The position numbers were made by a program, and so were the translations under genes. From assembly GCF_020193575.1 (NCBI RefSeq), contig NZ_JADYVD010000001.1:124001-188000 (forward strand): a DNA stretch of 64,000 nucleotides. The letters run 5' to 3'. This document shows positions 47,268 to 51,694 of the stretch, piece by piece; position 1 is the first letter of the stretch, and each line of letters begins with the position of its first letter. The notes under the pieces are model-generated. The model was not told the origin of the DNA. It was given only the letters and a program-made list of their open reading frames with translations, and ran no database searches. The DNA comes from Ensifer sp. IC4062. GTDB taxonomy: Bacteria > Pseudomonadota > Alphaproteobacteria > Rhizobiales > Rhizobiaceae.

Positions 47268-48395
47268 TCAATCGCCGTCGGCAAAGGAAAAACCGGCTCC
47301 GAGGCCGATGGCGCCGCCGAATTCGCGATTGAAGCGATCGAGGAGGTCAGCAGTGTTGAGCGTGATGAAGTCGAGCGTGGTGCGCCGGTTCTCGTCCACC
47401 AGCGCCGCGTCGATCGGTCCCTCGATGCCGTCCGCGGCGCGGATCAGGACCTTGAAGAGGAAATTGATCGAGCCGGCGATCGAGCGGCTGTCGGCTGGAA
47501 GCAGGCTTTCCATGCCGGCCGTATTGAAGAGCAGGTGCAGGGCCCGCAAATTCGCGGAAATGGACGGCATCGTATTGACCGAACGCCAGTAGATGGCGAG
47601 CCTTGGACGGCCCTTGTCGGACTTTCCGTCGGCCGCGCCGGCATAGAAGGGCCGCAGCCGTTGGTCCTTCACCATCTCGATGCTGTGGACGAGAACGCCG
47701 AGGAGCTCGGTTGCGGCTTCCTTGTTGTCGCGGAAGAGCGGATTGTCGGGACCGGGCTTCTTCCAGGCCGCCTGGATTCCGTCCGGCCTTTCCCATTCGG
47801 CAAGGATCTCGCGCGCGATCGCCCGCAGGTTTTCCGATATCGCGACGCCGTAGCGGCAGCGAAAGGCTCCGTCCTTTCCGGCAAGCGTTTCTGCCCCGGT
47901 GCCGTAGAGTACGTATTCGAGCGCGCCGAGGCCTTGGACAGCGACGCTTTTTTTCTTGAGGCTTTCTACCTGCGTTGCGCTTTCGTCTTCCTTGGCAAGA
48001 ATCGCCTGCACCTGCTTGAGACCGGTGCTCTTGCGGTCGGGATAAAAGAGGAAGCGCTCGAAGCGGTTCTGTTCCAGGGCCGGGCCGAGGCGGATGATCT
48101 CGATCGCCGACCATCTCTGTACCACGCCCGAAAAGGCCGAGCGGGAGGCCTCTAGCGCCGCGGCCGAAGGTGCCTCGCAAAGCGCGGCGCTCGTTTCCGC
48201 AAGCTCGACCGTCGCCTCCGCGAGGCGGCGATAGCCGGGGATGATGAAGCCGTCTACGGCCTTTGCCATGACGCCCGGCACGGCGGCCTCGTCGACGACG
48301 CGCGGCGAGAGCGCTTCACCTTCTTGCGCGGCCGTCGGAGTGGCGATGGCCGCGACTAGGGTGATGGCCAGGACAAGGGGAAGGCTCGGGCGCAT
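47268..48395 (-). CDS. Imelysin-family periplasmic protein (second imelysin)
   Basis: A 375-residue protein with a signal peptide (SLPLVLAITLVAAIATPTAA, residues 4-23). It has the imelysin helical-bundle fold: AFSGVVQRWSAIEIIRLGPA, VQGLGALEYVLYG and the long C-terminal helices. The usual GxHxxE motif reads G155-L-G157-A-L-E160, so the metal-ligand His is missing. Its ATG (48395-48393) overlaps the TGA of the DUF1111 gene by one base. It probably works beside the first imelysin in periplasmic iron handling. Confidence 0.85.
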   Translation of the reverse strand: MRPSLPLVLAITLVAAIATPTAAQEGEALSPRVVDEAAVPGVMAKAVDGFIIPGYRRLAEATVELAETSAALCEAPSAAALEASRSAFSGVVQRWSAIEIIRLGPALEQNRFERFLFYPDRKSTGLKQVQAILAKEDESATQVESLKKKSVAVQGLGALEYVLYGTGAETLAGKDGAFRCRYGVAISENLRAIAREILAEWERPDGIQAAWKKPGPDNPLFRDNKEAATELLGVLVHSIEMVKDQRLRPFYAGAADGKSDKGRPRLAIYWRSVNTMPSISANLRALHLLFNTAGMESLLPADSRSIAGSINFLFKVLIRAADGIEGPIDAALVDENRRTTLDFITLNTADLLDRFNREFGGAIGLGAGFSFADGD

Positions 48396-50254
48396 CAGAG
48401 TGACTCCAGGAATGTGATCAGGGCCTTTCGATCGTCCTTCGGCAGCGCGGCGAAGGCGTTGCGAGCCTTTTCCGCTTCACCGCCGTGCCAAAGGATGGCC
48501 TCCGCAAGATTACGGGCGCGGCCATCGTGAAGGAAGAAAGTGTGGCCGCTGACGGTTTGCGTAAGTCCGATCCCCCAGAGCGGCGGCGTGCGCCACTCGC
48601 GGCTGTCGGCGACGCCGACTTGCTGGCCGTCGGCAAGAGCTTCGCCCATATCGTGCAGCAGGAAATCCGAATAGGGCCAGATCAACTGGAACGCCTGCTC
48701 CTTGTGCGATGCATCGCGCCGGGTCACGAATTTCGGCGCATGGCAGCCCGTGCATCCGGACTCGTAGAAAAGCCGCTTCCCTCTCAAGGTCTCCGGAAAG
48801 CTCGCTTTGCGACGGGCGGGCACGGCCAGGTTGGAGGCATAGAACGTCACGAGGCCAAGCACCGGATCGGGCGCCTCGACGGGGCCGAGCCGTTCCTGAA
48901 CGCCGGTCGGAAACGCCCGGCAGCCGGTCTGCGCCTCGGTGCAATCGCCATGGCTACGGTCGTCGTCCGGGCTGGATAGGCCGATGTCGATGGCGAAGGC
49001 GTCGGCGGTCTGTCGTCGGAGCGTCGGGCTTTGGGCCTTCCAGCCGAAACGGCCAAGCATCATGGTTCCGGTTTTGGCGTCGCGGATAAGCGCAGGCCGC
49101 CCGCTGATACCGTCTCGGTCGCGGTCTTCCGGATCTGCGAGCGCGAAAATGTCGGCCTCGTGGATCGTCTCGATCAGTCCGAGACCGATCATCGGGGAAG
49201 CGACGCGCGGTGAAAGCGTCGTTGTCGGATCGAGCGGACCATAGCCGAGGCCGGCGATCGTGTAATGCGGCTTGCGCAGGGAAACCGTCTCGCCGCCCGC
49301 AAGCCTCACCCGCTCTTCCGTATACGTGATCGCTACGCGCCCTTCGGCTGCAAGCCCCGGCACGGCACTGTCCTGAAGTTGCGCACCGTAGACGGGATCG
49401 GGAAAATTGAGCGCGGTATGGGAGGCGATCATCTCCCGTTCGGCATCGTCGCGCGGCGCACGCGCAAGGCGGTAGAACATCGACATTGAGTCGGACGCCC
49501 CTTCCGGCGGTCGGCCGCGTCCGTCGCGGGGATGACAGCTCTCGCAGGAGCGGGCGTTGTAGAGCGGACCGAGCCCGTCGGAGGCTTGGGTGGAGGAGGG
49601 CGACGAAACCCAGAGCTTCTCGAAGAGCGCCTTGCCGAGCTTGAAGTTCTGCTCAGCCTCGAAGGGCAGGTTCGCCGAAAACTGGGAGAAGACTTGCCGA
49701 TCGACCGGCGCAATCGTCGTTGCGGCGCCGGCGGAAAGGGCCTCGAATTGTTCCGCCTTGGAGAAATCCGTCGTCGGCCGGGTGACGGTCCGCACGCGCG
49801 CGCGGTCGTGCTCGGAAAGGTCTTCGCGTTCGGGGCGGCACCCCCCTCTGCCCTGCCGGGCATCTCCCCCACAAGGGGGGAGATCGGCAAGGGGTGATGC
49901 CCCACTCAACCCATTAACCTGCGGGTGTGCCGTTGAATTAACCTGCACGGGGGCCGTTGAATTCGATCCCGGCCTGCGCGCGGTTACTGTCGGGCAAGGC
50001 TTTACCTCCGGCCGATCTCCCTCCTTGTGGGGGAGATGCCCGGCAGGGCAGAGGGGGGTGCCCACACCCGCGCCCCCGCTTTCAGCCGTTGCAACCTGAT
50101 TGGCTTCCGCCTTAGCGACGAGATTTGCATCGCCTCCCATCGCCGCTGCGGTGAGACCGAGAGCGGCGAGCGGCAGCGCTAGGAGGCGGGACGTCACATG
50201 CATTGGACTTGGGCCGGGCCGCACCTTTTGGAAGCGGCCCGCCTTTCGGCTCAT
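48395..50254 (-). CDS. Di-heme DUF1111 oxidoreductase with repeat-derived insert
   Basis: A protein of up to 619 residues. Heme-binding CxxCH motifs are CESCH (237-241) and CTGCH (501-505), so it is a di-heme periplasmic c-type oxidoreductase of the DUF1111 family. The start at 50254 overlaps the stop of the first imelysin by 4 bp; ATG 50203 (MHVTSRLLALPLAALGL) begins the signal peptide proper. Residues about 65-140 have no family likeness and come from a repeat element at 49837-50062. It probably oxidises iron or a thiol together with the imelysins. Confidence 0.85.
   Translation of the reverse strand: MSRKAGRFQKVRPGPSPMHVTSRLLALPLAALGLTAAAMGGDANLVAKAEANQVATAESGGAGVGTPLCPAGHLPHKEGDRPEVKPCPTVTARRPGSNSTAPVQVNSTAHPQVNGLSGASPLADLPPCGGDARQGRGGCRPEREDLSEHDRARVRTVTRPTTDFSKAEQFEALSAGAATTIAPVDRQVFSQFSANLPFEAEQNFKLGKALFEKLWVSSPSSTQASDGLGPLYNARSCESCHPRDGRGRPPEGASDSMSMFYRLARAPRDDAEREMIASHTALNFPDPVYGAQLQDSAVPGLAAEGRVAITYTEERVRLAGGETVSLRKPHYTIAGLGYGPLDPTTTLSPRVASPMIGLGLIETIHEADIFALADPEDRDRDGISGRPALIRDAKTGTMMLGRFGWKAQSPTLRRQTADAFAIDIGLSSPDDDRSHGDCTEAQTGCRAFPTGVQERLGPVEAPDPVLGLVTFYASNLAVPARRKASFPETLRGKRLFYESGCTGCHAPKFVTRRDASHKEQAFQLIWPYSDFLLHDMGEALADGQQVGVADSREWRTPPLWGIGLTQTVSGHTFFLHDGRARNLAEAILWHGGEAEKARNAFAALPKDDRKALITFLESL
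49837..50062. repeat. 52-bp inverted repeat pair inside the DUF1111 gene
   Basis: Arms at 49837-49888 and 50011-50062 are inverted copies matching at 51 of 52 positions; each begins or ends with GGCACCCCCCTCTGCC. Each arm carries a smaller hairpin (ATCTCCCCC... GGGGGAGAT). The 122 bases between contain a 24-bp tandem repeat (TTAACCTGC... GCCGTTGAA twice). The whole keeps the reading frame open. Confidence 0.9.
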
Positions 50255-51531
50255 TGGAAGACGGCGCTAGGATTATCCAGGCTGTCGGAACCTTCAAGCT
50301 CGATCGTGCCGAGATCGAGTGACGCGATGACGCGTTCGACGGTCTTCGCCTGCGCGATCAGGCCGTCGATAGCGGCCTGCACGGTGGCGTTACCCTCCGC
50401 ATTGCCTTCGCCGATCATCTGGTCATAGGCCTCGACCGTTTCGGCGCGCTTCGCCACGGCCTGCATCTTTTCGACAGTGGCCGCAAGGTTGTCCTTCAGT
50501 TCCTTGTCCAGCGCCGCGTCCTTCGCCGCAACGAGTTCGGAAAGCGAGGGACCGGTGAGCTTCGTGCCGTCGACCCGGGTATATTCGCCGGTATAGGCGG
50601 ACTGGATGCCGATCGCGTCATGGAGATGCGAGTTGTGCGTGTTGTCCGAGAAGCAATCGTGCTCTTCTTCCGGATCATGCAGAAGCAGGCCGAGCTTCAT
50701 GCGCTCGCCGGCCAGTTCCCCGTAGGAAAGCGAGCCCATGCCGGTGAGGATGGCGGTGAGGCCGGCCTTAGGATCGGCTTCGACCGCCTTTGTGGCGGCG
50801 CCCTCCGGCGTCCAATTCGCGACCATCTCCTTGAGATCGGAAACGAGCAGGCTCGTGGCTGCCTTCAGGTAGGCGGCGCGGCGATCGCAGTTGCCGTTCG
50901 TGCAGGCCTTGGTGTCGAAGTCGGTGTAGGAACGGCTGCCGGCGCCCGGACCGGTGCCGTTCAGGTCCTGTCCCCAGAGTAGGAATTCGATCGCGTGGTA
51001 TCCGGTCGCGACGTTCGCCTCGATGCCACCAGCTTCCTGCAGCGTCCCGGACAGGAGTTCGGGCGAGATGTTCGTCGCGTCGACGTCCTTGCCGTCGATC
51101 TTGATCGTCTTGTTGGCGATCACGTTGGCGACGAAAAGGGCGTTCTCGTCGCTTTCCGTGCCATAGCTCTGATCGACATAGTCGATCAGGCCCTCGTCGA
51201 GCGGCCAGGCGTTCACCTTGCCTTCCCACTCATCGACGATCGTATTGCCGAAACGATAGACCTCGGTTTCCTGATAGGGGTTGCGCGCCTTTAGCCAGGC
51301 TTCACGCGCGGCCTTCAAGGTCTCTTCGCTCGGGGTTGCGATCAGCGCGTCGACGGCCTTGTCGAGTGCTTCGGCCCTCGTCAGGGCGTCTTCGTATTTG
51401 GCGTGGGCAACGGCAGCATAGTGCTTGACGACCGCAGCGGCGTCGGTGGCGGCATTCGCCGGTTGCAAGGCCAGTACAGACGTTGCCGTCATGAGCGCCA
51501 GCGCGGCAGCGCGGATGAAATTCTTGGTCAC
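50251..51531 (-). CDS. Imelysin-family iron-regulated protein (IrpA/ICMP-like)
   Basis: A 426-residue periplasmic protein with a signal peptide (residues 1-27, cleaved after PANA). The imelysin metal motif is G177-Y-H179-A-I-E182 within GYHAIEFLLWGQD. The family (IrpA, EfeO-related, insulin-cleaving membrane protease) is iron-responsive and is thought to bind iron or haem. The start is GTG at 51531, giving MTKNFIRAAA, with AAGGAGAG upstream. It heads the imelysin-DUF1111-imelysin operon. Confidence 0.9.
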   Translation of the reverse strand: MTKNFIRAAALALMTATSVLALQPANAATDAAAVVKHYAAVAHAKYEDALTRAEALDKAVDALIATPSEETLKAAREAWLKARNPYQETEVYRFGNTIVDEWEGKVNAWPLDEGLIDYVDQSYGTESDENALFVANVIANKTIKIDGKDVDATNISPELLSGTLQEAGGIEANVATGYHAIEFLLWGQDLNGTGPGAGSRSYTDFDTKACTNGNCDRRAAYLKAATSLLVSDLKEMVANWTPEGAATKAVEADPKAGLTAILTGMGSLSYGELAGERMKLGLLLHDPEEEHDCFSDNTHNSHLHDAIGIQSAYTGEYTRVDGTKLTGPSLSELVAAKDAALDKELKDNLAATVEKMQAVAKRAETVEAYDQMIGEGNAEGNATVQAAIDGLIAQAKTVERVIASLDLGTIELEGSDSLDNPSAVFQ

Positions 51532-51549
51532 GACCCTCTCCTTTGCTCT

Positions 51550-51653
51550 CCTGCAGCGCCGCGCGTCCCAATGAGGCGCACAAAGGTCGCTGTAGCACTT
51601 TGCATCGCTGCAGGTTCTACCCTTCAATCGGGTCCGGTTAGGAAACATGCAGT
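51550..51653 (+). repeat. Structured ~100-bp dispersed repeat, copy 3
   Basis: It reads CTGCAGCGCCGCGCGTCCCA, CGCTGTAGCACTTTGCATCG and GGTTAGGAAACATGCAG. It is the most diverged of the four copies and lies in the leader of the first imelysin gene. Confidence 0.75.
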
Positions 51654-51694
51654 GGGCGGCGAGCCAACGTCTCGGAGCCCGCAAAAGCCCTCAT

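What the first reader, a model, noticed from the sequence alone, without database searches (positions are those of the whole stretch)
49837..50062. A 52-bp inverted repeat pair has been absorbed in frame into a di-heme DUF1111 gene
Two arms matching at 51 of 52 positions lie 122 bp apart, inverted, inside the coding sequence just past the signal peptide. The reading frame stays open through both arms and adds about 75 residues of low-complexity, Cys- and Pro-containing sequence before the first heme domain. Elements of this class normally sit between genes. Translation through such a strong hairpin in mRNA could also affect expression. It may be a recent insertion turned into a linker, or a real gene break with a start further downstream.
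Basis: seen in the sequence. Interest (0 to 1): 0.7.

Follow-up and report, generated by a model that had tools for sequence, protein, structure and literature searches.

The report
Palindromic DNA repeat translated inside enzyme
A dispersed palindromic DNA repeat of the rhizobia sits in frame inside a periplasmic di-heme enzyme gene, seems to have been there since early in the genus Sinorhizobium, and its two arms have stayed nearly unchanged as DNA while the stretch between them drifted.

Summary
In detail: 51 of 52 arm positions match, 122 nt apart, frame open. The element lies behind the only signal peptide, so it should be translated. It is not recent: of 33 Sinorhizobium genomes 20 carry it whole in this gene, 6 keep remnants, 7 show no trace; none of 78 orthologues read outside the genus has the arm. 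It belongs to a dispersed family (16 sites in this genome). The family is also in frame in CobN (two sites), FtsY (arms in 30 of 30 loci) and a PBP1C N-tail. The arms have no stop codon in any of six frames. The insert's protein shows little sign of purifying selection, but the arms are frozen as DNA: four-fold sites differ by 0.03-0.06, against 0.37 in the domain. In this gene the spacer follows the species; the arms do so weakly or not at all. I read it as a protein-coding palindromic repeat, of the kind known from Rickettsia and as intragenic REPs, tolerated as a linker and sometimes lost by deletion between the arms. Conversion by other copies, or selection on the hairpin, keeps the arms; I could not separate the two.

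The parts
48395..50203 (-). DHOR / DUF1111 di-heme oxidoreductase gene, ATG at 50203, 602 aa
   Evidence: PF06537 E 3.1e-92; orthologues in 33 of 33 genus genomes
50126..50203 (-). signal peptide region (MHVTSRLLALPLAALGLTAAAMGGDA), upstream of the insert
   Evidence: most hydrophobic stretch of the first 275 residues or so; alike in the orthologues
50011..50062 (-). 5' arm (mRNA order), read as GTPLCPAGHLPHKEGDR
   Evidence: 51 of 52 inverted match
49889..50010 (-). spacer of the element; its ends resemble spacer ends of a subfamily of dispersed copies (by eye)
49837..49888 (-). 3' arm, read as ADLPPCGGDARQGRGGC
50251..51684 (-). upstream imelysin gene (Peptidase_M75), ORF from its first possible start
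   Evidence: PF09375 E 1.8e-90
47268..48395 (-). downstream imelysin-like gene
   Evidence: PF09375 E 5.3e-46

Best explanation
The insert is one copy of a dispersed rhizobial palindromic repeat: two inverted arms of about 50 nt around a spacer of about 60-160 nt. It entered in frame between signal peptide and first heme domain of the DHOR gene in an ancestor of most of Sinorhizobium. The arms have no stop codon in any of six frames, so such a unit can be read through in either orientation if its length and spacer allow. It is translated as a periplasmic linker with little selection on its amino acids; the gene only needs it to stay open. It is sometimes lost by deletion between the arms. The arms are held near the family sequence by a process that acts on DNA or RNA and not on the protein: in this gene most likely occasional conversion by other family copies, otherwise selection on the hairpin. 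Shown: presence, frame, sharing across the genus, family, losses, DNA-level arm conservation. Inferred: mobility, a single old insertion, translation in the cell, a flexible linker, and the conversion step.
For: Whole insert in 20 of 33 genus genomes, remnants in 6, no trace in 7. 16 family sites in the own genome, 11 distinct inverted pairs among the loci fetched. In frame also in CobN (1422 aa, PF02514 over 138-1399, two inserts), FtsY (PF00448; arms in 30 of 30 loci fetched) and a PBP1C N-tail in three genomes. Four-fold sites, 20 rows: arms 0.030 and 0.059, spacer 0.422, domain 0.369. Raw N/S of one-letter codon differences: left arm 5.58, right arm 0.81, spacer 1.35, domain 0.31. Spacer distance follows the domain (Mantel 0.60, p 0.0002); ungapped 43-nt arm cores do not (-0.04, p 0.63) (19 rows). 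Orthologous arms differ by 0.042 and 0.050, as do DHOR arms from 92 little-changed dispersed arms (0.046, 0.049).
Against: Conversion is not proven. Codon-aligned DHOR arms taken together do show weak signal (Mantel 0.26, p 0.0075; left 0.09, p 0.20; right 0.25, p 0.014). In CobN the arms carry signal (0.21-0.41, three of four p 0.011 or less), and at its second site 8 of 10 printed rows keep a TGTCC-type left arm while 10 of 10 keep a TGCCC-type right arm. FtsY's second minus arm has signal (0.27, p 0.01), and its middle arm keeps its own form (20 rows). The arm equality uses 92 of 112 dispersed arms picked for few changes; against all 112 it is 0.072-0.075. No donor was found for the replaced-looking G032 insert (best non-DHOR copy 73-74% over most of its length). 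Two genus loci are out of frame: L022 (within the arm's C run) and L033 (collapsed remnant). Translation is untested; the AlphaFold model was poor (mean pLDDT 45.8).
Confidence: 0.8

Rival explanations
1. The arms are kept by selection on the nucleic acid itself: a hairpin in mRNA or DNA (protein binding, mRNA processing, translation pausing) that works in each gene.
For: The inner hairpin of the CobN and FtsY arms mostly stays paired although its letters vary between three forms. Very strong fold, z -14.8. Locus-specific forms persist in CobN and FtsY, and CobN arms keep phylogenetic signal.
Against: The element is lost, collapsed or one-armed in 13 of 33 DHOR genes, and 8 of 30 CobN loci have no arm core at all. 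DHOR arm variants hit many positions (25 distinct in a 43-nt core over 19 rows, a few from the 3-nt deletion of L002), yet left-arm divergence does not grow with species divergence (0.044 in the nearest bin of 7 pairs, 0.045 in the farthest of 96; right arm 0.040 and 0.051).
Confidence: 0.35
2. The insert peptide itself is useful (its four Cys, or as a spacer) and protein selection keeps it.
For: All four Cys are kept in 20 of 20 whole inserts; 19 of 20 are in frame with the signal peptide.
Against: Synonymous sites in the arms are frozen too, and amino-acid changes are not avoided (N/S 5.58 and 0.81 against 0.31). The same DNA is read in other frames in CobN and FtsY and is conserved there as well. 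Many losses.
Confidence: 0.07
3. Gene break: translation starts after the insert and the part before it is not coding.
For: Frame lost upstream in L022 and L033.
Against: No signal-peptide-like stretch after the insert; signal peptide and open frame kept in 19 of 20 whole-insert orthologues; domain under purifying selection (N/S 0.31).
Confidence: 0.04
4. Repeated insertion or replacement by young copies at a hot spot explains the alike arms.
For: CobN site 1 holds very different spacer types in different species. Sister genomes G021/G032 differ by 2% at third positions of the domain but by 18% in this element. Other repeats entered the same gene in Rhizobium.
Against: DHOR spacers align as one set whose distances follow the gene (Mantel 0.60); remnants at the same point in six species suggest old presence.
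Confidence: 0.2

Closest known systems
Rickettsia palindromic elements (RPE)
   Same: Palindromic repeats of about 150 bp inserted in frame in unrelated genes and encoding peptides (passages of PMC10969869; passages and section 15 of PMC3733652).
   Different: Other hosts; here a GC-rich element of free-living rhizobia with arms open in all six frames. No NCBIfam model matched three insert peptides; that this library holds an RPE model is recalled.
Intragenic REP repeats (GTAG/CGTC families)
   Same: Mostly intergenic palindromes, some inside ORFs, some twice in one gene (section 15 of PMC3733652).
   Different: Those are 20-40 bp units (abstract); here 50-nt arms in units of about 160-260 bp. 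Membership was not tested.
Rhizobium-specific intergenic mosaic elements (RIME) and other S. meliloti palindromes
   Same: Host group and repeated intergenic elements (passages of PMC2573895; PMC2873474).
   Different: RIME sequences could not be compared; the 1995 paper is not held. 'Intergenic' does not hold for 5 of 16 sites here.

Membership tests
Rickettsia palindromic elements (protein-coding palindromes) | in-frame insertion in conserved genes of unrelated function | tested here: met
   DHOR, CobN, FtsY, PBP1C
Rickettsia palindromic elements (protein-coding palindromes) | sequence relation to an RPE family | tested here: inconclusive
   no NCBIfam hit up to E 10 for three insert peptides; RPE sequences themselves were not compared
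RIME | sequence match to a published RIME | not testable with these tools
   paper not held; no Rfam match at gathering score in the window
RIME | lies between genes | tested here: not met
   5 of 16 sites of this genome are in frame in conserved genes
MITE | target-site duplication and a partner transposase | not tested
   CobN sites with and without the element were aligned, but I could not name a duplication; no transposase was sought
REP/REPIN (RAYT-linked) | GTAG or CGTC tag and a RAYT gene | not tested
   no RAYT search was made

The most novel reading that the evidence does not exclude
A dispersed DNA repeat family keeps control of coding sequence inside conserved genes. Its arms are renewed or selected as DNA, whatever the frame and gene, so short stretches of FtsY, CobN and DHOR evolve as members of the repeat family and not as parts of their genes.
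Probability: 0.35. Interest if true: 0.75.

Novelty: new variant of a known kind. Interest (0 to 1): 0.52.

Why it matters
Protein-coding palindromic repeats are best known from Rickettsia. Here is a set in tractable soil bacteria, with occupied, element-free and collapsed sites in related species and in several genes, FtsY among them. It offers a test of what keeps repeat arms alike: gene conversion, or selection on a hairpin inside coding sequence. It also warns that synonymous sites and residues in such inserts are not ordinary evolutionary signal.

Tried and rejected
AlphaFold2 on the 32-row alignment A1 gave mean pLDDT 45.8 and is not used; by mistake its first row began two residues after the start Met. 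A donor for the G032 insert was sought in three genomes; outside the DHOR locus the best long match was 73-74%. Rfam: nothing at gathering score in the window, two chance-level hits (E 0.36 and 0.72) around the element. NCBIfam: nothing for three insert peptides. Papers: none of the held library carries any of four arm words of 16-19 letters; searches on rhizobial or in-frame palindromes and on cobN listed no report of this, by titles and abstract starts. Most subscription papers are not held, so this is no proof of absence. A stop-free frame was not taken as a gene: ORFs across the elements at L228, L229, L232, L235 had no Pfam hit, and by eye stop codons of flanking genes precede the element in the alignments that hold L050 (same site as L228), L065 (L232) and L067 (L235). 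L241 was left out although its ORF has hydantoinase domains, because only a 24-nt arm piece lies at the start of that ORF.

Rows dropped and labels: the tree used 4 remnants and 9 absences among the 33 genus rows (plus 6 outgroup rows); later moved L027 and L033 to remnants. On the earlier labels 'whole' needs 7 changes, 5 forced by well-supported branches. L022 was left out and the N/S counts. One search used 19 of the 20 whole-insert rows (L005's right arm has a 3-nt deletion and fails its cut-off). The ungapped cores overcount pairs with L002 and L005 for the same reason. One search used 15 of 30 CobN rows per arm and 20-25 of 30 FtsY rows. 'No trace' was read on DNA for L024, L025, L031 and on protein plus an arm-core scan for L026, L028, L029, L032.

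Full report
What is there. The two arms are real: 51 of 52 positions, 122 nt apart, or 59 of 65 with 96 nt between. They lie in a minus-strand gene for a DHOR (DUF1111) di-heme protein between two imelysin genes. The gene starts at 50203 with a signal peptide, and the element takes up residues about 48-122, before the first heme domain. No second signal-peptide-like stretch follows. A downstream start would leave the protein without export, so the insert should be translated; that is inference. As RNA the stretch folds at -182.9 kcal/mol, z -14.8.

Age. All 33 genus genomes held have the gene. Reading them: 20 carry the whole element. Six keep pieces: the right arm only in L010; short or collapsed ends in L013, L023, L027, L030, L033. 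Seven show no trace (L024, L025, L026, L028, L029, L031, L032). Among the whole ones L022 has lost the frame within the arm's C run; among the remnants L033 is out of frame. The named collection identifies several carriers as Sinorhizobium/Ensifer (terangae, psoraleae, aridi). Outside the genus, 78 of 79 fetched orthologue loci could be read (L034-L043 and L080-L148 without L103), and none has the arm core within 14 mismatches; L081 has what looks by eye like a related palindrome in another frame, with unread bases. Spacer distances follow the domain (Mantel 0.60, p 0.0002). I conclude one old insertion with several losses, though local replacement also occurs: G021 and G032 differ by 2% at third positions of the domain but by 18% in the element.

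Family. The own genome has 16 sites with at least a piece of the element; three other genomes gave 65, 72 and 19 arm matches. Paired copies are mostly inverted arms around a spacer, about 160-260 nt in all; pairings inside one multi-arm region run from 135 to 309. On plasmids the family is in 186 records, 73 Rhizobium and 71 Sinorhizobium; of the 40 rows listed, 32 have an annotated record and none of these shows a feature under the match, in a gene table known to be incomplete. The arm has no stop in any frame.

Other genes. Of the 16 sites, 5 are in frame in conserved genes: DHOR; two in CobN (1422 aa, PF02514); one region with two elements in FtsY (PF00448, PF02881); and the N-tail of a PBP1C-like protein. 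In CobN, 18 of 30 loci fetched have two or more arm cores, 4 have one, 8 have none. In FtsY each of the 30 loci fetched (of 33 found) has at least two arms, in the same frames throughout. The PBP1C insert is in frame in three genomes.

What is conserved. In 20 DHOR genes four-fold sites differ by 0.030 (left arm) and 0.059 (right arm), against 0.366 before the insert, 0.422 in the spacer and 0.369 in the domain. Amino-acid changes are not avoided in the arms (raw N/S 5.58 and 0.81; spacer 1.35; domain 0.31). So the protein is not what is conserved. Left-arm divergence is 0.044 in the nearest bin of pairs and 0.045 in the farthest; right-arm 0.040 and 0.051. DHOR arms are no nearer to their orthologues (0.042, 0.050) than to dispersed arms with at most 4 mismatches (0.046, 0.049; 92 of 112 used); against all 112 it is 0.072-0.075. 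Picking little-changed arms favours this equality.

Against a simple conversion story. Codon-aligned DHOR arms together show weak signal (Mantel 0.26, p 0.0075), although the ungapped cores show none. CobN arms are also slow (0.046-0.075, against 0.33-0.34 at four-fold sites) but keep signal, and particular paired variants stay at particular arms. FtsY arms differ by 0.070-0.095 against 0.27-0.28; the middle arm keeps its own form. At CobN site 1 single arms differ from other species in both paired letters at once, which fits conversion or compensated change. I hold conversion and nucleotide-level selection both open, and lean to conversion for DHOR.

Known or new. In-frame palindromic repeats are known from Rickettsia and, as REPs, from other bacteria (passages of PMC10969869; passages and section 15 of PMC3733652). 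Rhizobial palindromes are described as intergenic or extragenic (passages of PMC2573895; PMC1525189; PMC2873474). I found no report of this coding family in the held library. I file it as a new variant of a known kind.

Noticed in passing
L083, L100, L101, L104, L106, L110, L112, L114, L120 (Rhizobium DHOR loci): A different repeat (peptide VLVTGIQPRRV...SSAPKDLGALDSCD and variants) lies in the open frame upstream of the signal-peptide core of the same gene in nine loci; whether it is translated is open. The L100 copy has 602 matching places in 186 plasmid records.
   Followed up: partly
L231:4823-9088 (own genome, CobN): CobN carries two family elements in frame; site 1 holds different spacer types in different species, and L261 keeps what looks like a collapsed remnant at site 2.
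   Followed up: partly
L233:4623-6470 minus (own genome, FtsY): FtsY's acidic N-terminal region is partly built of family arms in each of 30 Sinorhizobium loci read.
   Followed up: partly
L030:1249-3000: In G017 the DHOR element has lost its middle and holds another inner palindrome between the outer arm ends.
   Followed up: no
L004 and L006 (G021, G032): Sister genomes with 2% third-position divergence in the domain but 18-19% in the element.
   Followed up: partly
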